From: a virus
Direction: 5' to 3' (one strand)
Virus record (IMG/VR): IMGVR_UViG_3300035698_000605
Span: 1 to 21,341 of that record
Length of the DNA stretch: 21,341 nucleotides
Shown: in pieces, positions 2,477 to 17,035 of the stretch
Layout of the letters: each line of letters opens with the position of its first letter
Position numbering within the stretch: the stretch's first letter is position 1
Made by a program: the position numbers and the translations under genes
Notes under the pieces: model-generated
What the model was told of the DNA's origin: nothing
Databases searched by the model: none
What the model saw: only the letters and a program-made list of their open reading frames with translations

Positions 2477-4782
2477 GCGAACCATTAAACGAATTTCGCA
2501 AGGTTGACGCTGCGGAAGGTGATGAGAATATCCATGCAGAGGCGCTAAAGCGGTTCTCTGTACTCCAAGACCGAGAGCGGTTTTCACGAGCTCTGGCGAT
2601 TGAGGATAAGATTCAGATAGAAAGTGAGGGTGGAAATTGGGAGGAGTATGAATCATCCTCTGATAACGTCAGGAATGGTCGGGGCGAATCAGCACCACCG
2701 CCACCTCGATACCATATCGACAGGGTAACTCCTGTACTTGAGCAGTCACTTTCAGACCAGCGTCAGAATGAGATCCAGATACAGGTACGCGGATCTCGTT
2801 CTTCCAACAAGCAGTTAGAAGGTACAATGTCAGGCTTGATCAAGTCGGTCGAGTCTAGAAGTGATGCGAGCTACGCTTACGACAACGCGTATGATGAAAC
2901 CCAGAAGTGCGGATATGGCGGGTATCAGATCGTCACCGAGTGGGGCGATGGCTTCGACCAGGAAATTCTCATCAGGCCCATCAAAGACGCTGCCAGCTCT
3001 CTATGGTTTGGCGAGTCAGACATGTATACCAAAGAAGATGCTCTGTATGCTTTCGTGGTTTGGTATCTCGACGCGGACGAATTCAAGGCGCAATACCCGA
3101 ATAACTCACTGACTGACGTACCTGACGATATATGGTTGGCCAGCGGGAAGATGAGTGCTGATTGGTACGAAACTGACAATCATAAGGTCAGGATGGCGGC
3201 ATACTGGCGCAAGAAGCCCGTCAAGCGAGAAATCGTGATGATGACTGACGGCAAGGTTTACGATGTCGACGAGTCTTTCGATGCTATCCAGGACGAATTG
3301 GCGGCTCAGGGCATTACTATTGAGATCCGTGACGGCAAGGAAATGCGGCGCAATATTGACGATTACGAGGTTGAGCGGTACATCATCAATGGCGCAGAAG
3401 TATTGGGTGAAGTGGATAAGTGGGCTGGTAAGTACATTCCGCTGGTCCCTGAATACGGTGTTCAGACCACTATCCAGGGGCGAGAGATAATCCGTGGTCG
3501 GGTCAGAAAGACTCGGGACGCTCAAATGCTGTATGACTATGCTCAATCAGCCGCGGTCAAACAGGCAGCGAGTAATGTCCAAGACGTATTGATGCTCACT
3601 GCCGAACAAGCAGATGGGTATGAATCTGATATTGAAAACCTATCTCTAGGTGATGCGGCTGCACTAACCTATAACCACATTGACGGTCAGCCAGCGCCCT
3701 TCAGGACTCAATCAAGACAGTTAGACCAGGCTCTGATGGGGATATCTCAGGCAATGGCGGAGAACATCAATGCAACGCTAGGTGGCAATGTCGGATCGGG
3801 CGTAGATGGCACGGCGGCAGACGGTCGATCAGGTGAAGCTATTTTGCAGGGTCAGGCTGTATCGGAGAAATCCAACGCCATCTACATGACCAACCACATC
3901 CGGTCTGTGAGCTATGGCGGCAAAATACTTGCTGACCTATTGCCGCGGATTATGTCTCGTGAGGCCCAGGCTCGAATTATTAACCCAGATGGGTCCGCTG
4001 AATTTGTATCAATCAACACATCGGTGTTGGATTTGCAGAGCGGTAATACTTTCACAATCAACGATCTCGGTTCATCCAAGTACGACATCATTCCAGATGT
4101 GGGTCCAGCCTACGCCAGCAAGCGACTACAGGCATCGGCTCAACTGCAGTCTCTGTCTGAGAAAAATCCAGCATTCGGCCAACGTCCTGACCTGATCGTG
4201 AAAGGATTGGATCTTGGTGACGGTGGCGAGATGTACGAATCTCTCCGCAAAGGGCTAGTGATGTCCGGCGCTGTCGATCCAACTCCCGAGGAGCGGGAAG
4301 AATTCCAGATTGACCAAACTGAGCAGATTAAACAGCGGCTTATTCCAGAGTTAATGGAGCAGTTGATGCAGGATGCCAATATCAGGTTGGTGAACGCTAA
4401 CGCTGCGGCCCTTGAGTCTGAGGCACAAGCCTCAATGAGTTCGACAGATATCGACCTCATGAAAGCGGAAACCGCACAATTTAAGGCTGAGTCATCGGCC
4501 AACGCTCAGTCGATCAAAGATATCAGCGAAGCCTTCAAAGGCTTCAAGGCTCAGATGGAGGCGCTTAAAATACAGAACGCCTTAGGTATCGAGTTGAGTG
4601 CTCAGGATGCGGATAACCTGCAATCTCAATCAGAAGTCGTCGAGGGAACGCAACAAGTTGTAGCGCCTGGACCCAACGCTGTGCAGCAAGAGCAATTCGA
4701 CAAGGTAGTGCAAGGATTCGATGCTCCGGATGCGGGTTTCACGTTCAACATAGATACGGGTGCTATCGATGCCAATAGTTGA
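2473..4782 (+). CDS. P22-type portal protein
   Basis: The dodecameric portal forms the capsid vertex through which DNA enters and leaves. At 769 residues it is close to the P22 gp1 class (about 725) and much longer than siphovirus portals. The P22-family signature is seen at about residues 80-106, YHIDRVTPVLEQSLSDQRQN followed by EIQIQV, in which the DQRQN core (95-99) is characteristic. The middle region is alpha/beta. From about residue 618 to 730 the chain becomes Gln/Ala/Glu-rich and helical (repeated 'ANAAALESEAQAS'-like segments), as expected for the C-terminal barrel helix that P22 portals extend into the capsid. The start overlaps the TerL stop (ATGA), and the end overlaps the next gene by 14 bases. 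Confidence 0.95.
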   Translation: MSEPLNEFRKVDAAEGDENIHAEALKRFSVLQDRERFSRALAIEDKIQIESEGGNWEEYESSSDNVRNGRGESAPPPPRYHIDRVTPVLEQSLSDQRQNEIQIQVRGSRSSNKQLEGTMSGLIKSVESRSDASYAYDNAYDETQKCGYGGYQIVTEWGDGFDQEILIRPIKDAASSLWFGESDMYTKEDALYAFVVWYLDADEFKAQYPNNSLTDVPDDIWLASGKMSADWYETDNHKVRMAAYWRKKPVKREIVMMTDGKVYDVDESFDAIQDELAAQGITIEIRDGKEMRRNIDDYEVERYIINGAEVLGEVDKWAGKYIPLVPEYGVQTTIQGREIIRGRVRKTRDAQMLYDYAQSAAVKQAASNVQDVLMLTAEQADGYESDIENLSLGDAAALTYNHIDGQPAPFRTQSRQLDQALMGISQAMAENINATLGGNVGSGVDGTAADGRSGEAILQGQAVSEKSNAIYMTNHIRSVSYGGKILADLLPRIMSREAQARIINPDGSAEFVSINTSVLDLQSGNTFTINDLGSSKYDIIPDVGPAYASKRLQASAQLQSLSEKNPAFGQRPDLIVKGLDLGDGGEMYESLRKGLVMSGAVDPTPEEREEFQIDQTEQIKQRLIPELMEQLMQDANIRLVNANAAALESEAQASMSSTDIDLMKAETAQFKAESSANAQSIKDISEAFKGFKAQMEALKIQNALGIELSAQDADNLQSQSEVVEGTQQVVAPGPNAVQQEQFDKVVQGFDAPDAGFTFNIDTGAIDANS

Positions 4783-7276
4783 GTTTGAAGGGGACAGAAT
4801 ATCCTTCCCAGACCAGATGAGCCTGGATGAGATTGAAGACGTTCTTGACGGGCTCTGGGCTGCTACTCAGGCCACGGGTGAGGTCATGGCTACTCTTGGC
4901 ACTGCGGTTCCAGCAGAGATCATAGGCGGCCTTTCAGGGCTTGCCCATGCTGCCGGCCTGGGTGAGGGTCGAGGCGATGTGGCAGGATCTGGCGCAAAGA
5001 TCGCGGATCAAGTTACTCAAGGACTGACATTTCAGCCTAGAACCGAAGCAGGTAAACGGGCGATGGCCAGATTGGGCGATGACATGAGATCACTTGCCGA
5101 ATCCGCAAACCTAGATCAAATCTCGGGATACTGGCGAAATAAAATGGTGCCAAAGATCCAGGAGTTTGCCGGGCCTGTTGGTGGTAGCGCAATTGCCGCG
5201 ATTAGTGTGGGACTCTTTAACGTATTGCCTGACATGGTCCCAGGCGGCAGGGTGGTTAAGGGTGCCAATAAATCAAGGCGGTTTGGTTTTGATGAGATCG
5301 GCTCTGCAGGCGAACAACTGACCAAGGGCAAGAACAAAAGAGTGCTGGACGAATACGGCAACAAAATACAGCGGCCAACTAAGATGACAAATGTTCCCGG
5401 CATTCGAGGCATCCCCTCTGATGACGCGATTGAAATAGCAAGATATGAGCCTCATTTAATCCCGTCCGGGGCTTCTTCGGATGGCGCTTATATTGGCGGT
5501 CCTAGAGAGGTTCAGTCCAGGCGTGACCTGCTAAAAGTTAGAGACTCGCTGGATCAGACGATTGAGCGAGGGGCCGAGGGCGGAGATTGGTATGATCGAT
5601 ACCGAGATGATGTTACTGAGGTTACCGGCGGAGATCCCCGAGATGCGACCTGGATGACAGCAATGGAAGGGCAGTATTCTGCAGGCGTGGATCCAGGTAG
5701 TGAGTTGGCGTTTTCGCTGAAAGACACGAACTCAGGGATAGCTTTTGATGGCCGTCCGGTGAAGCCTGCTCGACCAGCACAGCAAGCTGCGTCTATGAGG
5801 GCGATCGAGGCTAATGATCCGAGCCTATTCCAGCTGGGACCAAAAACTGGTGAGTACGCGCATCGGGTAAATCCTGCGGCTGACCATGTTCCAACAGCAA
5901 CCGGGGTGAACGATTTCCGTCACGCTCGCAACCTGAATTACACTGAAATTGATGGGTCGCCTCAGCGCGAAGGGATGGGAACCTCTGCACACACATTTAT
6001 GGATTATGAGACTGCGCTCGCGGTAGGTAGGGCTAACGATTCAAACCTGGCAGGCAGAAGTAATTGGACCGGTGAGCAGGTTCAAGCAGCGCCCTGGGTT
6101 GCACAGAAAGCAGACGACCTATTTTCCAGGGGGCAGAAAAATTACATGAAGAAGGCAAAAGTAACCGCAGAGCGTGATGGACTTAATGAGCCGCTCGAAA
6201 TGATTGCTAAAAGCTTGGCCTTTGATGATGCGAATAAGACAATCGGCAATTTTTACGATAAGCACACTGCGTTTGCGACTCATGAAGCTCAACCCTATGT
6301 GGGCGCAAATCATTTGCCCGGGCTATTTGACGAGGGTGCTGATCGGGCTGGCTTCGCTGCAGACCCAAGATCATCATGGCGCACAGAGGATGGCCGCGAT
6401 GCGATTTATTCAGGGATGAGACTTAATGATACCGGGTATGCGGTAAGAACCAGAAAGAGCACAGACATGACCGGCGCGTATGATCCGCCTGCCGGGACCG
6501 GAGTCGAGTACAACCCTGGCGAGGTCGCGCGTCCTCTAGTTGCTTTTGATAGCGGTGACGTAAAGAGCGTTCCAGATGCTGACAGATCAATTCTAGACGC
6601 TGGAGAAGCAACAAGATCCTACATTGATGCTCAGGGTGCAGGCGCATGGCACAAGCCCTGGGTCGGCGGCAAGGCTCGAGACTCTAACGCTGTTGTGATA
6701 AGCAGGAGGGATGGTGATCGCGCCGCTACAGAAGCGGAAATGTCAAAGCTTGCCGATATTGGTCAACGGTATGGGCTTGGTGACGTTGTTGACCAAGGTG
6801 CCGGTGTGACGCTTAATGATTTCTATAATGGCGCTCCACCAATTGACAATAAGACACTTAAAAGGCTAGGCGCAGAAATTGGTGAGATCATTCCGAATTC
6901 GGACATTATCAGAGCCAAAGTTGATAGCGGCTATCTCTCAATGTTTGAAGATGCAAGCTCAATCGGCAAGGGCGAGATAACAGAGAAGTTTTTGTCTGTT
7001 GTTGATGGGCTGCCAGTAGGGACCAGGCGAGCACTTAACAGGAACCCCAACATCCCTGGCAAGGCTCTTGATCGGCTCGCTCGAGATGCTGAGTTGTCTG
7101 CTACTTATGGCGTGGTTAGGCAAGATATACAAAACGCCAGGAAGATCATCGGGGAAGGTCCAGGATGGGTTGAAAAGCTGCGTAATGGCGTTAAGAAGGG
7201 AGCTATTCTTCCTGCTCTTGCGGCTCTGCTGGTTGCTCAGGGTCAGGATGACGAGGAGTCCGAAGAATCCTTATAG
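4769..7276 (+). CDS. Large phage protein of unknown function (835 aa) between portal and scaffold
   Basis: The ATG at 4769 is preferred to an in-frame GTG at 4760, because the product then begins MPIVEFEGDRISFPDQMSLD. This is a 'ligand-like strand, FPD, (S/T)xDEI' opening seen at the start of many phage virion proteins. Residues about 125-155 contain a Gly/Ala hydrophobic stretch. The central part has strongly patterned blocks (TGVNDFRHARNLNYTE, HTFMDYETALAVGRAN, NWTGEQVQAAPWVAQK), which I recall from other phage proteins without an assigned activity. The C-terminus has a short hydrophobic helix (AILPALAALLVA) and a very acidic tail. The overlap with portal implies late, virion-related expression. 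It could be an internal or portal-associated protein; an enzymatic role is not excluded, as no catalytic motif was recognised. Its last 74 bases are overlapped on the - strand by a 55-codon gene. Confidence 0.65.
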   Translation: MPIVEFEGDRISFPDQMSLDEIEDVLDGLWAATQATGEVMATLGTAVPAEIIGGLSGLAHAAGLGEGRGDVAGSGAKIADQVTQGLTFQPRTEAGKRAMARLGDDMRSLAESANLDQISGYWRNKMVPKIQEFAGPVGGSAIAAISVGLFNVLPDMVPGGRVVKGANKSRRFGFDEIGSAGEQLTKGKNKRVLDEYGNKIQRPTKMTNVPGIRGIPSDDAIEIARYEPHLIPSGASSDGAYIGGPREVQSRRDLLKVRDSLDQTIERGAEGGDWYDRYRDDVTEVTGGDPRDATWMTAMEGQYSAGVDPGSELAFSLKDTNSGIAFDGRPVKPARPAQQAASMRAIEANDPSLFQLGPKTGEYAHRVNPAADHVPTATGVNDFRHARNLNYTEIDGSPQREGMGTSAHTFMDYETALAVGRANDSNLAGRSNWTGEQVQAAPWVAQKADDLFSRGQKNYMKKAKVTAERDGLNEPLEMIAKSLAFDDANKTIGNFYDKHTAFATHEAQPYVGANHLPGLFDEGADRAGFAADPRSSWRTEDGRDAIYSGMRLNDTGYAVRTRKSTDMTGAYDPPAGTGVEYNPGEVARPLVAFDSGDVKSVPDADRSILDAGEATRSYIDAQGAGAWHKPWVGGKARDSNAVVISRRDGDRAATEAEMSKLADIGQRYGLGDVVDQGAGVTLNDFYNGAPPIDNKTLKRLGAEIGEIIPNSDIIRAKVDSGYLSMFEDASSIGKGEITEKFLSVVDGLPVGTRRALNRNPNIPGKALDRLARDAELSATYGVVRQDIQNARKIIGEGPGWVEKLRNGVKKGAILPALAALLVAQGQDDEESEESL

Positions 7277-7370
7277 GAGATCCTCCATACGCGCGGTCCT
7301 CCTCATCTGGCAGTAGATCGCCTTCTATTAGGCGAACTCCATTGGGTAGTTCAGTTACTTTTCTGCTCAT
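7203..7370 (-). CDS. Small acidic protein (55 aa), third gene of leftward cassette
   Basis: Reading leftward from ATG 7370, an open frame of 55 codons ends at TAG 7205-7203. It begins MSRKVTELPNGVRLIEGDLL and ends in a Pro/Gln/Glu-rich tail (PEQPAEPQEQEE). A strong Shine-Dalgarno sequence (AAAGGAGAG, four bases before the ATG, in + strand 7375-7383) supports translation. It begins 23 bases after the zinc-ribbon gene stops. The last 74 bases lie opposite the 3' end of the 835-residue + strand gene, so both strands would be coding there. No family is recognised. The first 25 residues suggest a small beta-containing fold, and the tail is probably disordered. Confidence 0.6.
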   Translation of the reverse strand: MSRKVTELPNGVRLIEGDLLPDEEDRAYGGSPIRILRTPRHPDPEQPAEPQEQEE

Positions 7371-7393
7371 ATTGCTCTCCTTTGGTCCCGATG

Positions 7394-7594
7394 TTAGTTA
7401 CGGTTGAATCTATCGTAATCTTTGGCCATATCGTGGATATTTTGCAGGCGCATGATCGCAGCAACCAAGCGACTATTCTTCTCGACGTATCCGGTATGCT
7501 CGCAGTTCGTGCAGTAACCGCGAACGGATAAATATCCGGGCGGAATTTCCCATTTGCAAAGCCTGCAAGGCTCGGTGTGGGGCTTTGTGCTCAT
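7394..7594 (-). CDS. Small zinc-ribbon protein (66 aa)
   Basis: The protein has a four-cysteine ribbon: C10-x2-C13 (CRLC) and C28-x2-C31 (CTNC) with a 14-residue loop. A helical, charged C-terminus (RLVAAIMRLQNIHDMAKDYD) follows. Such ribbons bind zinc and usually mediate nucleic-acid or protein contacts. ATG 7594 is chosen over an upstream in-frame TTG (7597), because the very strong Shine-Dalgarno GAGGAGGT sits correctly for ATG but too close to TTG. That Shine-Dalgarno lies in the final codons of the upstream 105-residue gene, and the two genes overlap as TGATG, so translation should be coupled. The specific function is unknown. Confidence 0.75.
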   Translation of the reverse strand: MSTKPHTEPCRLCKWEIPPGYLSVRGYCTNCEHTGYVEKNSRLVAAIMRLQNIHDMAKDYDRFNRN

Positions 7595-7911
7595 CAAACC
7601 TCCTCAATTTTAAAATCAACAGATCCATTACGCTTTTGTGCTGCTGCCGCCTTTCGCTGTACTGCTGGCAGTGATCGCGCGCTTTCATTCCAACAATGGC
7701 AAAAGTCACCATCATTGTAGTTGGGATTTTTTGGGTCCGTCCAAAGAAATGATACTTTAAATTTACGGGCAGGCTTTGGTGCCGCCTTCAGCATTTTGAA
7801 TCCGTTACCATCGCATGCGAAACAAATACCAGCAACGACATGGGTGAACGCTCGAATGTGACCCTTTCCGCCACATTTACCGCAATCTACTTTAACTAAT
7901 GCTTTTGCCAT
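7594..7911 (-). CDS. DnaJ-type (CxxCxGxG) zinc-finger protein, first gene of leftward cassette
   Basis: The 105-residue protein carries two CxxCxGxG-type knuckles, CGKCGGKG (C10, C13) and CFACDGNG (C30, C33). Together they form one DnaJ-like zinc ribbon. A third cysteine pair, FCHCW (C71, C73), may be a separate feature. The remainder is basic (KAAPKPARKFKV; the AAAAQKR region) and ends FKIEEV. There is no J domain, so it is not a chaperone. Small phage proteins of this type are often of unknown function, and the ribbon also occurs in some late antitermination proteins, so a transcription-linked role is possible but not shown. It is preceded by AGGGG at suitable spacing and by a near-consensus promoter. 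It runs against all neighbouring virion genes. Confidence 0.8.
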   Translation of the reverse strand: MAKALVKVDCGKCGGKGHIRAFTHVVAGICFACDGNGFKMLKAAPKPARKFKVSFLWTDPKNPNYNDGDFCHCWNESARSLPAVQRKAAAAQKRNGSVDFKIEEV

Positions 7912-7943
7912 TTTTGTTCCCCTGCTTGCCTGCTTAGGAGTTA

Positions 7944-7971
7944 ATTATACTCATCGCATACCGCGTTGCAA
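7944..7971 (-). promoter_or_regulatory. Sigma70-type promoter for the leftward zinc-ribbon genes
   Basis: On the - strand, TTGCAA (+ strand 7966-7971) and a perfect TATAAT (+ strand 7944-7949) are separated by 16 bases. This predicts a start near 7937 and a leader of roughly 25 bases before the ATG at 7911. It is the best host-type promoter in the window and suggests expression by host RNA polymerase without phage late control. Confidence 0.75.
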
Positions 7972-7995
7972 CTGCTAAATGCAAAACAAATGCAA
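7966..7995. repeat. Three TGCAA repeats at near-helical spacing
   Basis: TGCAA occurs at 7967-7971, 7980-7984 and 7991-7995 (start-to-start 13 and 11 bases), the last two as ATGCAA. The first overlaps the -35 of the leftward promoter. The spacing would put the sites on nearly one face of the helix, as at a multi-site operator. The repeats are short and chance is possible. Confidence 0.3.
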
Positions 7996-8037
7996 TTAGA
8001 TAATATGGGTCGGCACATCAAACCCAGGCTAATAAAA

Positions 8038-8056
8038 TAGTTAGCACTTACTAACA
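8038..8056 (+). promoter_or_regulatory. Palindromic operator-like element, copy 1
   Basis: TAGTTAGCACTTACTAACA. Its first 16 bases fit TAGTNAG-CA-CTNACTA, whose 7-base arms are complementary apart from the N positions. It matches 17 of 19 bases of the second copy at 11248-11266, and the only two differences fall at the N positions. The element lies 52 bases before the scaffold start. Such a palindrome suits a dimeric helix-turn-helix regulator (for example TetR-type) or a phage-specific transcription signal. Which of these applies is not determined. Confidence 0.55.
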
Positions 8057-8108
8057 TTATGGAATAGAATTGAATTTACTCATAAACTAACCCGACAGGA
8101 TAAAGGAA

Positions 8109-12973: not shown

Positions 12974-13401
12974 GTGAGGTTTCGGAGCAGTTTTATGAAA
13001 ACCACAAGGTCAGAATTGACGCATTAACTAACGCGATTGAGTGTGCGATAGAGGAAGGAGCGGAGGCGGGTAACATTGAGCCAACTAACTATTTTGCTCA
13101 CGGCACTTATGGCAGAGAATTGCTGGTAAAGAAAGGGACTTTCATCACTGGAAAGATTCATAAACATACCTGCATCACGATTATTTTGTACGGTCATTGC
13201 AAGGTATTAACGGACAAAGGCGATTTCGATGTGACTGGGCCGAAAGTTCTGGTCACTGGCACTGGTAGCAAGGGCGTTTACGCTTACGAGGATACTTTAT
13301 GGCTTACCGTTCACCCTAATGAGGGCAACGGTACAGACTTGGAAGTAATAGAAAATAACGTTATCGCACCGGATTATGCGGCGCTGGAGAATAAAGCATG
13401 A
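12970..13401 (+). CDS. Cupin-fold phage protein
   Basis: This protein is 143 residues long from ATG 12970 (an upstream in-frame GTG at 12958 is rejected because of the ATGA overlap). The N-terminal helical part (VRIDALTNAIECAIEEGAEA) leads into YFAHGTYGRELLVKKGTFIT. It then enters a cupin motif, GKIHKHTCITIILYGHC (61-77), and a second motif ending WLTVH (111-115). Candidate metal ligands are H64, H66 and H115. The glutamate usual in cupin motif 1 is absent, so metal binding may be lost or altered. Similar proteins lie near tail genes in other podoviruses, with unknown function. Both junctions overlap by ATGA, placing it firmly in the late operon. Confidence 0.75.
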   Translation: MSEVSEQFYENHKVRIDALTNAIECAIEEGAEAGNIEPTNYFAHGTYGRELLVKKGTFITGKIHKHTCITIILYGHCKVLTDKGDFDVTGPKVLVTGTGSKGVYAYEDTLWLTVHPNEGNGTDLEVIENNVIAPDYAALENKA

Positions 13402-13979
13402 CTTTCGGAGTAGTTGCAGCAGTGGCGACAGTGGGCAGCGCGGCAATTGGCGCGATCTCCAGCAGAAACGCATCGAAGCGAGCTGCGGCGGGAGCGGAAC
13501 GCGGCCAAGACATATTGGTAGCATCTCGAGCGCAAGGTCGGGCTGATGCGATGCGGCAGTTTCCAATTGCTCAGGCATCTCAAACAAAGGGATTCGAGGA
13601 GTTTAGAGATTTCCTCTCGGGTCAGGTCATGCCAGCTCAAAGCACTCCGTTTATTGGCGGCAACATGGCGGCTCAAGAGCAGGTTGCTCGGGGCTTGCCT
13701 CAGATCCAGAACGCTATACTTGGCAATCCTATCGATACCAGTGGGTTCGTTGCCCGGCAGATTGGCCAGGCTCCAAGTTTTGATATGTCGAAGTACGGGC
13801 CGCAAGAACCTGAAGCTCCTCCTGCTGCCGCCCCTTTTGACATTGATCAGTATTTGAGCCAACTCAACTTGGGAAACTTGGGGAATTTCGCTCTAGGCAA
13901 TTTCGATCCGTACCACACAGCAGGGGGCAGCGGCAACAGGTTTGCGACTATGAACGTTAAAACAAGGGAGTCCCGATGA
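13398..13979 (+). CDS. Putative small ejection (internal virion) protein, gp7-like position
   Basis: This is a 193-residue protein. Residues 3-21 (FGVVAAVATVGSAAIGAIS) form a Gly/Ala-rich hydrophobic helix, followed by a basic coil-forming segment (RNASKRAAAGAERGQD). The rest is Gln/Pro-rich with low complexity (APPAAAPFDIDQYLSQLN, then LGNLGNFALGNF). A hydrophobic glycine-zipper start plus Gln/Ala-rich body is typical of podovirus internal or ejection proteins that enter the envelope with the DNA. Its place between tail-plug and larger ejection proteins matches P22 gene 7. Homology with P22 gp7 cannot be claimed from sequence alone. GGAG (13385-13388) precedes the ATG, which overlaps the cupin stop. 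Confidence 0.65.
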   Translation: MTFGVVAAVATVGSAAIGAISSRNASKRAAAGAERGQDILVASRAQGRADAMRQFPIAQASQTKGFEEFRDFLSGQVMPAQSTPFIGGNMAAQEQVARGLPQIQNAILGNPIDTSGFVARQIGQAPSFDMSKYGPQEPEAPPAAAPFDIDQYLSQLNLGNLGNFALGNFDPYHTAGGSGNRFATMNVKTRESR

Positions 13980-16900
13980 TTCAGCAAAATTATGGAAGGG
14001 AACAGATGGTCCGTTTGCAAGGCAGCGGAGTGATGCAGAATCCTATCGGCGGGCGCTTTAATTCTAGGGTCGGCTTTGTTCCTGCGGACTATTCCGGCCA
14101 AAATAGAATGGTTACCCGCCCCGTGCCAGCATCTTCACCTCCACCTCAATTGCCATACATGGGCAAGTCACTTCTGAATTCCGATCCTAATAGCCTGCAA
14201 GCGCAATATACAGGGCCGGTTCAAAACCCCAACGACCAGATGGTTTACCAAGGCGGCAGTAGCGATTTCGACGAACGTACGGGTACATATAGATCAACTG
14301 GGACAAGCCAGCCGCCCAATAGAGCAGACCTAGACGCACAGATGAATTCTCCAGCCCGAGAGCAGGCCAGGATTCAAGCGCAGCAAGACCTAAACGCAAG
14401 AACCGCATACGGCAGGCAGCCAAGCGCCGGTCAATCACCGGTAAACCCAAGAACAGGCCAATACGACACAATAGACCCAAACAATCCAAACTTTGACGAG
14501 AATGGGAACTATCGGTTCGAGAACGCCCCTGGAACTGGCGGTCCTATGCCTTCACTCCCTCGGGACGCTAATGGTCGGGTAATTTTTTCACCTGGCTTCG
14601 GTATGCCCGGGCAGGATTTCGGCGGCGGAGGGATTCCCGATGTCACAGATCCGTTTAATTTAGGGTATCAAAATCCACAAGAATCAACAGGCGCTGATTC
14701 TTCTTTTATTGCTGCTATTGGCGGTAGTGGCGATTTCGACGAAAGTACGGGGAAATTTAGATCAACCGGAACAAGCCAGCCACCACCTCGGGACGCTAAT
14801 GGTCGGGTAATTGGCGGGTATCCGCAAAATCAGTCACCATACGTGCAGCAGCCTCAAGGACCGATTGCGGGACCACAGCGGCAGCCAACTCAGCCACAGC
14901 CACCTGAATCTTTTAGGCCGGATGAGTCCGGATACAACATGAACCCGCAAGTTAGCCAGCAACAGAGAGATCAGCTCGCGGCAGAATCTTCTCAAGCAAT
15001 GGCGGCGGCACAGCAATACGGTCTTTCTGGTGCAGAGAACGCACTGCAGCAAGGCGCTATTCAGGGCATCGGCGCTATTACGGGTGGCGCAATGGCGGCG
15101 GGTGGCGCTATTCAAGAGGGCGGGCAGAATGCTCTGGGCCGTCTTGATAGTGCTCGAGGCATGATTGGTGCCGGTGTTGGTCAATCTATCACCGCAATTG
15201 GCGGTGCTTCGGGTCGCGCTCAGAATATGGTTTCCGGTGGTACTCAGGGCGGAGTCAACGCTTTGCAGCAGAGTATGTATGGAGCGCAAGGGCGGCTTGA
15301 CCAGGCTGGCAATATCATCGGCGGCGCTGTTAATCAGAACGTGCGAGGACTTCAGCAGGGCGGTCAGAACGCCCAGAATTTATTGGGTAGGGCTGGCGAT
15401 CAAGGTCAGCAGATGATCGGTCGGGGAGTCTACGATGCTCAACGCGCAGGTCAATATGGCCAGAATGCCTTAGCTCAAGGCGGCCAGAATGCTCAAAACG
15501 CTTATGGGCAGGCGATCAGTGGTACGCAACAAGCAGGTGTCCAAGGTCAGAACTATCTAGCGCAGGGCGGGCGGAATGCTCAGGGCCAGGTACAGCAGGG
15601 CGTGAACGCTCTGCAACAGGGTGCTAATAGAGGCCAACAGATGCTGTCATCACTGTTCGATCAAGCTGTTAATCCAGTCACGGGTTTTATTGACCCCGGA
15701 CAAAAGTCTCAGATTCTCCAATCGGCCATGACAGGCGCGATGGGACCAGAGGCGCAGAGAGCAGCGATTGCTGACTTCTCCGGCGATCCTGCGGCGGCGT
15801 TTGCGCTTGAAGAAGCAGAACGGGCGACATTGAGAAACGCATCAGCGATTGGTGGTCTAGGCGGCGGTCGAGTACGTCAGGAATTACAGCGACAAGCCCA
15901 GGGCATCCAGAACCAGCAGTTTAATACTCGGGTTGATCAATTAGGCAGCCAGGCTGCTCTTGGATTGAACGCTGCGACTACTGCGGGTCAATTACGCGGT
16001 CAGCAGGGTCAATTGAGTTCTAACCTTGCAGCTCAGACGGGTCGAGACATTGCACAATCAAGGCAGTTTGGTGCTGGGTTGGCTCAGGATCTCGGAGCGA
16101 ACCAGTCAAGCCTCTCAAGAGGAATAGCTCAGGACGTTGGCGCTTTGAGAGGTCGTCAAGGCGATCTTGCTCAGAGCCTGGGCGCGAACCAAGCAGATCT
16201 GTTGAGTCAAACCGCTAGAGATGTCGGTGGATTACGCACAACAGGTGCTAACCTGGCCCGCGATATTGGCGGGGCGCAGGCAGACGTTGCACGTGGAACA
16301 TCCCAGGACGTTGCCAGAATACTAGAATCTGGCGGTGTTGCTCGAGCAGGATTGGCAGAACAGTCGGCATTGCTACAGCAGCGGACGGGTCAGAGCATGG
16401 CCGAATTGATTAATTCTGGTGCGGTTACTCGGGCGGATATTGAAACCGGCGCGGCCAACTCAATTTCTCAATTAATCGCCAGCGGTTCTTTGGCTGGTGC
16501 TGAGATCGAATCGATTGCTGCTCAGGTTGAACAGAGCACTGGTCAGAGTTTGGCGGAGGTGGCTCAGAATACGGGCATCAACATTTCGAACATTGCGACG
16601 AATCTTGGGGCAGCTTCGGCTGATCTACGCTCTCAGGCTGGCAGAGATTTGGCGGCAGCGATTGCTGAAAGTTCTACTCAACTTGCTAACTTGCAATCTC
16701 AGCAAGGCGCTGGATTGGCAGACATTGCTGGTCAGACGGGTGCAGGACTTGCTGACTCATTGCTCAGAGAAGGAATTTTAGACGCTGATTCGGCTCGGCA
16801 GTTGGGTACATTGTTGGCGAACATCAGTGTTGAGGGTGCTACTTCTCAGGCTAACCTGGCGCAGAATGTTGGTAAGTTCGAGGCGGCTGGATTGCTCGGG

Positions 16901-17035
16901 ATGAGTGATAATGTTCAAAGTGCTCTCGGTTCGCTTGCTGAACAATTTGGCAGAAATACAGCGCGGACTAGCGCGGTTGATGCTGCAAATAGGGCTGGTG
17001 CTGCGGGTGCTTTCGGTACTCCAGTGGCCCAATAA
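13976..17035 (+). CDS. Large repeat-rich DNA transfer (ejection) protein, 1019 aa
   Basis: This is probably an internal protein ejected into the cell envelope to help DNA passage. Residues 1-330 are Pro/Gly/Gln/Asn-rich and likely disordered, with repeated DFDE-x2-G-x-[YF]RSTGTSQPP and PRDANGRVI segments (93-114, 195-203, 249-279). Residues about 345-560 form a first Gly/Gln/Ala helical repeat array. A junction domain follows with 'RNASAIGGLGGGRVRQELQR' (about 620-639). That 'NA(A/S)A-GGLGGG-R..-L.R' block recurs in phage proteins annotated as DNA transfer proteins. Residues 672-816 are five 29-residue units (11+11+7), and 853-973 are eleven 11-residue units. There is almost no Cys or Trp. 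The start overlaps the previous stop (ATGA) with GGGAG upstream. Confidence 0.75.
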   Translation: MIQQNYGREQMVRLQGSGVMQNPIGGRFNSRVGFVPADYSGQNRMVTRPVPASSPPPQLPYMGKSLLNSDPNSLQAQYTGPVQNPNDQMVYQGGSSDFDERTGTYRSTGTSQPPNRADLDAQMNSPAREQARIQAQQDLNARTAYGRQPSAGQSPVNPRTGQYDTIDPNNPNFDENGNYRFENAPGTGGPMPSLPRDANGRVIFSPGFGMPGQDFGGGGIPDVTDPFNLGYQNPQESTGADSSFIAAIGGSGDFDESTGKFRSTGTSQPPPRDANGRVIGGYPQNQSPYVQQPQGPIAGPQRQPTQPQPPESFRPDESGYNMNPQVSQQQRDQLAAESSQAMAAAQQYGLSGAENALQQGAIQGIGAITGGAMAAGGAIQEGGQNALGRLDSARGMIGAGVGQSITAIGGASGRAQNMVSGGTQGGVNALQQSMYGAQGRLDQAGNIIGGAVNQNVRGLQQGGQNAQNLLGRAGDQGQQMIGRGVYDAQRAGQYGQNALAQGGQNAQNAYGQAISGTQQAGVQGQNYLAQGGRNAQGQVQQGVNALQQGANRGQQMLSSLFDQAVNPVTGFIDPGQKSQILQSAMTGAMGPEAQRAAIADFSGDPAAAFALEEAERATLRNASAIGGLGGGRVRQELQRQAQGIQNQQFNTRVDQLGSQAALGLNAATTAGQLRGQQGQLSSNLAAQTGRDIAQSRQFGAGLAQDLGANQSSLSRGIAQDVGALRGRQGDLAQSLGANQADLLSQTARDVGGLRTTGANLARDIGGAQADVARGTSQDVARILESGGVARAGLAEQSALLQQRTGQSMAELINSGAVTRADIETGAANSISQLIASGSLAGAEIESIAAQVEQSTGQSLAEVAQNTGINISNIATNLGAASADLRSQAGRDLAAAIAESSTQLANLQSQQGAGLADIAGQTGAGLADSLLREGILDADSARQLGTLLANISVEGATSQANLAQNVGKFEAAGLLGMSDNVQSALGSLAEQFGRNTARTSAVDAANRAGAAGAFGTPVAQ
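14252..14315 (+). repeat. Repeat A, copy 1 (DFDE unit)
   Basis: This 64-base segment encodes GGSSDFDERTGTYRSTGTSQ and PP. It is closely matched at 14720-14783, with most changes synonymous or conservative. A third, diverged protein-level copy (PNFDENGNYRFENAPGTGGP) lies between them near residues 165-184. Confidence 0.75.
14558..14584 (+). repeat. Repeat B, copy 1 (PRDANGRVI unit)
   Basis: This 27-base stretch encodes PRDANGRVI and is exactly repeated at 14786-14812. It follows a diverged A-type unit. Exact identity at the DNA level suggests a recent duplication or gene conversion. Confidence 0.8.
14720..14812 (+). repeat. Repeats A and B, second copies joined
   Basis: A (14720-14783) and B (14786-14812) stand side by side here, encoding GGSGDFDESTGKFRSTGTSQ, PP, then PRDANGRVI. 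This gives the full composite unit, of which the earlier copies are separated parts. Confidence 0.78.
15989..16423 (+). repeat. Five 87-base (29-residue) super-repeats in the ejection protein
   Basis: Units start at 15989, 16076, 16163, 16250 and 16337, exactly 87 bases apart. Each reads as two 11-residue blocks plus 7 residues. Units 2 and 3 are clearest (GLAQDLGANQS... and DLAQSLGANQA..., each with a later ..RGIAQDVG / ..SQTARDVG block). Units 1 and 5 are more diverged but keep L, T, R/D and the terminal GA positions. 29 residues over eight turns gives 3.625 residues per turn, close to an unstrained alpha helix. Confidence 0.75.
16532..16894 (+). repeat. Eleven uninterrupted 11-residue (hendecad) repeats
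   Basis: Residues 853-973 divide without gaps into 11-residue units such as QSTGQSLAEVA, SQQGAGLADIA, GQTGAGLADSL and RQLGTLLANIS. Glycine sits at unit position 4 in most, and a hydrophobic residue at position 7 or 10. This predicts long amphipathic helices with hendecad packing. DNA identity between units is low, so the array is old. Confidence 0.72.

What the first reader, a model, noticed from the sequence alone, without database searches (positions are those of the whole stretch)
7203..7971. Leftward zinc-ribbon cassette with its own strong promoter inside the virion block
Seen: three small genes (105, 66 and 55 codons) on the opposite strand to every neighbour, joined by TGATG or a 23-base gap. 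Each later gene has a strong Shine-Dalgarno, and the set sits behind TTGCAA-16-TATAAT. Two products carry four-cysteine ribbons. Known: small foreign-looking, independently promoted genes inside structural operons of temperate phages ('morons') are often host-protective or regulatory. Inferred: this may be a moron whose products act on transcription, host defence or superinfection. The separation of scaffold/coat from terminase/portal by a reversed cassette is unusual for P22-like layouts.
Basis: partly seen in the sequence, partly recalled or inferred. Interest (0 to 1): 0.65.

Follow-up and report, generated by a model that had tools for sequence, protein, structure and literature searches.

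The report
Tiny convergent partner of virion protein
A backwards-reading three-gene cassette in a P22-like phage is real, and its last gene turns out to belong to a family of tiny genes that many environmental phages keep head-on against the end of one large virion-type protein gene, an arrangement like that of a known phage gene that blocks rival phages.

Summary
In detail: three leftward genes A (105 aa), B (66 aa) and C (55 aa) lie behind TTGCAA-16-TATAAT between portal/orf838 and scaffold. The "moron" reading is only half right, because the cassette is composite. C is not free-standing. It belongs to a family of ~60-aa proteins encoded convergently on the 3' end of orf838, a large hydrophobic-tailed virion-type protein. 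Of 70 phage loci carrying orf838 with enough downstream sequence, 54 have C by HMM; an antisense small ORF with ribosome-binding site straddles the 3' end in 53 of 59 distinct loci, against 16 of 243 other large genes. C is under protein-level purifying selection, has Shine-Dalgarno sites (47/54) and excess sigma70-like promoters. C and orf838 match no Pfam or PHROG family, and searches of 50,697 phage records found nothing convincing. orf838+C+B+A form one ~3.3-kb block absent from five close relatives, where portal abuts scaffold. A is a mobile zinc-ribbon protein with kin on Alteromonas and Citrobacter plasmids; B has no found kin. Most likely C is a cognate partner or inhibitor of the presumably ejected orf838 protein, geometrically like P22 sieA facing ejection gene 16. 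Binding, ejection and exclusion are inferred, not shown.

The parts
7203..7370 (-). Gene C, 55 aa: member of a conserved ~60-aa family encoded convergently on the 3' end of orf838; motif region outside the overlap, Pro/Gln-rich tail inside it
   Evidence: HMM hit in 54 of 70 loci, all in this one place; purifying selection and SD
7394..7594 (-). Gene B, 66 aa, four-cysteine ribbon, no relatives found
7594..7911 (-). Gene A, 105 aa, DnaJ-type CxxCxGxG zinc ribbon plus conserved C-terminal domain; plasmid and phage accessory family
7944..7971 (-). sigma70-like promoter TTGCAA-16-TATAAT of the leftward unit
4760..7276 (+). orf838, large protein with hydrophobic C-terminal tail; convergent partner of C; probably a virion or ejected protein (inferred)
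4710..8034 (.). whole present/absent block (portal 3' end, orf838, C, B, A, promoter) relative to L014, where about 53 nt lie between the same flanks
8040..8070 (+). GTTAGCACTTACTAAC palindrome overlapping a rightward promoter-like site (TTAGCA-18-TAGAAT) just outside the block, also in L014; may restart scaffold/coat transcription

Best explanation
The locus is a composite module. Core: a convergent, 3'-overlapping pair made of orf838, a large protein that is probably a virion component ejected with the DNA, and C, a ~60-aa soluble protein made from its own host-type promoter, so probably early or in the prophage rather than with the late genes. C most likely acts on the cognate large protein, perhaps on its conserved hydrophobic C-terminal tail, as an inhibitor or self-protection factor: it would keep incoming copies of the protein from working (superinfection exclusion) or shield the producing cell. 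In this phage two accessory zinc-ribbon genes, A and B, lie upstream of C and share one leftward promoter with it. Shown: the pair, its conservation, selection on C, promoter and SD enrichment, presence/absence of the block, spread of A over plasmids and phages. Inferred: virion location and ejection of orf838, binding by C, timing of expression, exclusion or immunity.
For: C-HMM hits in 54 of 70 loci with sequence beyond the orf838 stop; all hits with E up to 0.32 in 82 loci lie at this one place. SD-preceded ATG antisense ORF straddling the 3' end in 53 of 59 distinct orf838 genes against 16 of 243 other large ORFs of the same contigs. Non-overlap part of C: 144 synonymous codon changes against 52.3+-6.5 expected, 251 of 465 differences at position 3. 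Sigma70-like sites of at least 10/12 upstream of C: 5 of 53 against 0.45 expected. orf838 tail hydrophobic in 48 of 59 distinct genes against 17 of 272 controls; some homologues fused to cell-wall hydrolase or tail lysozyme; BFVD neighbours include large-polyvalent-protein entries. P22 precedent: sieA is leftward with its own promoter, 22 bp beyond ejection gene 16, and SieA escape maps to gp16 and gp20 (PMC10883804, passages). Integrase in 8 of 25 relative records.
Against: No sequence likeness between C and SieA, and C has no hydrophobic segment (0 of 54), so it cannot be an inner-membrane SieA-type protein. 17 of 25 relative records show no tyrosine integrase (many are fragments), and orf838 was found in 1 of 369 genomes of one bacterial class and on one contig of the species genome set, so many carriers may be lytic or their hosts unsequenced. 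In 7 of the 30 motif-scan C loci with downstream sequence, C faces another large protein, so C may not act on the orf838 core itself. No interaction, expression or phenotype data.
Confidence: 0.4

Rival explanations
1. C is an assembly chaperone or anti-aggregation factor: it binds the hydrophobic C-terminal tail of the large protein during synthesis so that it can be packaged, and is not an immunity factor.
For: The large partner mostly has a hydrophobic tail (48 of 59); C persists with other large proteins whose tails are moderately hydrophobic (15-residue Kyte-Doolittle maxima 1.25-1.73).
Against: A chaperone would normally be co-transcribed with its client on the same strand; C runs the other way with an excess of promoter-like sites of its own.
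Confidence: 0.2
2. C is an independent early host-takeover or regulatory protein that stays beside orf838 only because the two genes overlap, so recombination moves them together.
For: C remains when the large partner is another protein (L173, L179/L180, L191/L194-196); A, in the same leftward unit, has relatives beside DNA-metabolism genes.
Against: In L022-24, L071-72, L083-84/92 and L063 the small gene differs but still sits convergent at the same place, which hitch-hiking alone does not predict.
Confidence: 0.2
3. The leftward transcript works as antisense or colliding RNA that holds down orf838 and downstream late genes until the late phase; the peptide is secondary.
For: Convergent overlap of 20-143 nt and promoter-like sites.
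Against: Selection acts on the amino-acid sequence outside the overlap, with SD sites kept.
Confidence: 0.1
4. The cassette is an ordinary moron: three foreign genes that benefit the lysogen, unrelated to orf838.
For: Promoter, strand, absence from close relatives, plasmid relatives of A.
Against: C is tied to orf838 in dozens of phage loci.
Confidence: 0.1

Closest known systems
P22 sieA facing ejection gene 16
   Same: small leftward gene with its own promoter, inside a rightward virion block, directly convergent with an ejection-protein gene; SieA very likely acts on gp16/gp20 (PMC10883804, passages)
   Different: SieA is a 164-aa inner-membrane protein without likeness to C; the genes do not overlap in P22; C has no hydrophobic segment
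Superinfection exclusion aimed at tape-measure proteins (HK97 gp15 type)
   Same: small phage-encoded protein that blocks function of a large ejected protein (as told in PMC10883804, passage)
   Different: no sequence comparison was made; gene position not checked
Polyvalent / MuF-type injected multidomain proteins (Iyer et al. 2017, PMC5512222, passages)
   Same: large proteins of the virion gene block with variable N-terminal domains; some BFVD neighbours carry the name large polyvalent protein associated domain
   Different: the orf838 core matches no Pfam domain; no effector domain found in the window protein
DnaJ-type CxxCxGxG zinc domains, Q-like antiterminators, anti-TRAP (for gene A)
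   Same: paired CxxCxGxG knuckles
   Different: all matches below curated cut-offs or weak; A is 105 aa with its own conserved C-terminal domain

Membership tests
Phage moron | own promoter independent of the surrounding operon | tested here: met
   TTGCAA-16-TATAAT, a consensus match only
Phage moron | present in one phage, absent between the same flanks in relatives | tested here: met
   5 of 5 relatives spanning the site lack it, but orf838 is absent with it
Phage moron | not needed for, and not part of, virion functions | tested here: inconclusive
   C is locked to a probable virion gene; A and B were not found in relatives
Phage moron | expressed in the lysogen | not testable with these tools
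   no expression data
SieA-type superinfection exclusion | convergent gene next to the targeted ejection-protein gene, own promoter | tested here: inconclusive
   geometry and promoter-like site are there; that orf838 is an ejection protein is inferred
SieA-type superinfection exclusion | inner-membrane protein | tested here: not met
   no hydrophobic segment in any of 54 distinct C proteins
SieA-type superinfection exclusion | sequence relation to SieA | tested here: not met
SieA-type superinfection exclusion | blocks DNA entry of superinfecting phage | not testable with these tools
   needs an experiment
Polyvalent injected proteins (orf838) | several recognisable effector or LPD domains | tested here: inconclusive
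   no Pfam domain in window orf838; fold neighbours with the LPD name at low TM-score
Q-type antiterminator (gene A) | match to a Q family above noise | tested here: inconclusive
   phrog_6060 E 0.0066, phrog_127 E 0.012; a 51%-identical stretch in a protein annotated Q
Known defence systems | match to PADLOC models | tested here: not met
   window A, B, C and orf838 and three small proteins of other loci: none at E<=0.1

The most novel reading that the evidence does not exclude
A widespread two-gene conflict module of environmental phages, for which no description was found in the library searched: a large ejected protein and a tiny cognate antidote encoded head-on against it and locked to it by overlapping code. 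The antidote has been replaced by unrelated sequences in several lineages, as in toxin-immunity pairs, and in this phage it shares its promoter with two zinc-ribbon genes, one of plasmid type.
Probability: 0.3. Interest if true: 0.8.

Novelty: new variant of a known kind. Interest (0 to 1): 0.62.

Why it matters
Conserved genes encoded antisense to structural genes are easily missed by annotation. This one recurs in dozens of phage contigs, is under protein-level selection, matches no Pfam or PHROG family and has no convincing match among 50,697 phage records. It links a tiny gene to a specific large virion-type protein, so its function can be tested directly, and it suggests that exclusion or immunity genes may be placed head-on against their virion targets more often than in P22 alone.

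Tried and rejected
Single foreign moron of three genes: rejected for C because the C family stays with orf838. Shadow of orf838 coding: rejected because the conserved motif of C lies beyond the orf838 stop and shows an excess of synonymous change there. SieA homology: tested, none. PDB fold of orf838: no Foldseek match with E<=0.001; efflux-pump rows at Z up to 7.6 over model residues 300-522 taken as a common arrangement. Fold of C: beta-hairpin plus helix, pLDDT 68.5, pTM 0.27, too weak to use. No PDB sequence match for the C or orf838 profiles at E<=0.1; A only one chance match, E 0.98. PADLOC: none; NCBIfam: only hits far below cut-off. A and B by single-sequence scan of viral contigs: none. 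First genome scan with A2 found nothing; the second, with A3, found one MAG contig. Papers: seven searches of the held library; some searches were aimed at antisense or opposite-strand small genes and virion or ejection proteins and listed nothing that by title or start of abstract describes this pair; only passages of PMC5512222 and PMC10883804 were read. Gene maps made with a home-made caller missed most C genes and were not used for counts.
Full report
What was checked. The window is a 21,341-base virus record, probably a fragment. The flanks are P22-type head genes.

Presence and absence. In five contigs close enough to align across the site (L003, L004, L005, L007, L014; coat 75-87% identical) portal is followed by scaffold with no such genes. 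Against L014 the alignment stops at window 4709 and resumes at 8035, so portal 3' end, orf838, C, B, A and their promoter form one 3.3-kb present/absent block, with about 53 nt in its place. The direction, gain or loss, is not known. L002 and L035, the closest by coat or portal, do not reach across the site.

C is the partner of orf838. Searching viral contigs with orf838 gave 20 loci and, with an 11-row alignment, 126 relatives of which the best 80 (79 distinct loci) were kept. Mapping window proteins showed C-like ORFs antisense at the end of the orf838 homologue. A C profile built from 11 hand-picked members and iterated hits 54 of 70 loci that have the stop codon and at least 250 bp beyond, at E<=0.001; every hit down to E 0.32 in the 82 loci lies on the minus strand across the orf838 3' end, and hits elsewhere begin at E 1.0. 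The 16 misses are L022-24, L052, L063, L071-73, L078, L079, L083, L084, L092, L093, L096 and L100. In 11 representatives of them another SD-preceded small leftward ORF was found there: some look related to C (L093, L100), some do not (L022-23, L063, L071, L083), and L096 is doubtful. A count that does not use the C profile, SD plus ATG antisense ORF of 40-150 codons straddling the 3' end, gives 64 of 70 loci, 53 of 59 distinct, against 16 of 243 other large ORFs on the same contigs. On a tree of 64 orf838 cores three of the replacement types are each one clade, and the window sits with L015/L016, support 100/98.

C is a protein gene. Outside the overlap, 18 locus pairs differ at codon positions 1/2/3 by 111/103/251; synonymous codons 144 against 52.3+-6.5 by chance. 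SD sites precede 47 of 54 distinct starts against 234 of 2,564 control ATGs. Sigma70-like sites in the 140 nt upstream reach 9/12 in 13 of 53 (3.1 expected), 10/12 in 5 (0.45), 11/12 in 2 (0.05); several of these rows are close relatives. C has no hydrophobic segment and no Pfam or PHROG match at E<=0.01 in 37 members scanned; a related C finds nothing in the phage collection at E<=1, and the window C only two chance-level matches at E 1 and 3.

A scan with the C motif itself found 32 loci, many on contigs already in hand. In 23 the orf838 core is convergent, 2 end too early, and 7 face other large proteins of three kinds, which end in moderately hydrophobic tails. So C is not tied to the orf838 core alone.

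orf838. The window protein has no Pfam match beyond a chance-level LRV hit and no PHROG match. Its core has no relative in 50,697 phage records, and neither has that of L075; one MAG contig was found in the species genomes, and the same one in a class sample of 369. The model (pLDDT 77.7, pTM 0.80) matches at E<=0.001 ten predicted viral proteins, those with names from uncultured Caudovirales phages, one of them called large polyvalent protein associated domain-containing. Homologues carry N-terminal Hydrolase_2 (L028, L031) or Phage_lysozyme2 (L042); 3 of 15 homologues scanned have such a domain. The C-terminal tail is hydrophobic in 48 of 59 distinct genes against 17 of 272 other large ORFs. 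Virion location and ejection are inferred from these.

A and B. A matches 105 plasmid records, 2 of them over at least 80% of its length: same-sized proteins on Alteromonas plasmids, 50.6% identical; the rest, mostly Citrobacter and Klebsiella, are shorter matches. One match lies in Ochrobactrum phage OC, annotated as Q, and near full-length ones in two virus contigs, L110 and L111, upstream of genes that I take, from recall of the families, for early DNA-metabolism genes. B has none. The best A and B matches in the loci held are weak (A E 0.046, B 1.4), so they look like additions in this phage.

Mechanism. P22 has the same geometry: gene 16 ends at 13313 and sieA runs back from 13830 to 13336 with its own promoter, and SieA escape mutations lie in gp16 and gp20 (PMC10883804, passages). 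C is not a SieA but may work like one, or as chaperone or antidote for the tail. A tyrosine integrase is present in 8 of 25 relative records, so at least some carriers look temperate; the window itself shows none. I put 0.4 on the partner/inhibitor reading; the existence of the conserved convergent pair I regard as well established.

Noticed in passing
window 8040-8070: Palindrome GTTAGCACTTACTAAC overlapping the -35 of a promoter-like site before scaffold, with a counterpart in L014 (TTAGCG-18-TACAAT); scaffold/coat may have a regulated promoter of their own.
   Followed up: partly
L186 5104-5639: Two small ORFs next to C resemble the C-terminal segment of the large protein, as if its tail were duplicated as separate pieces.
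   Followed up: no
L083 7859-8059, L071/L072, L022-L024, L063: Small leftward proteins that look unrelated to C occupy its place at the orf838 3' end, with lineage-specific types.
   Followed up: partly
L028 8420-11929, L031 7721-11932, L042 4387-7893: orf838 homologues with N-terminal cell-wall hydrolase or tail lysozyme domains.
   Followed up: partly
L108 2490-3770 and L109 1363-6373: On the Alteromonas plasmid the A relative directly follows a DNA cytosine methyltransferase gene; on the Citrobacter plasmid it follows dinG, with a Lar restriction-alleviation gene nearby.
   Followed up: no
window 13976-17035: 1019-aa repetitive protein with a weak match to phrog_598 DNA ejection (E 9.4e-07); perhaps another ejection protein.
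   Followed up: no
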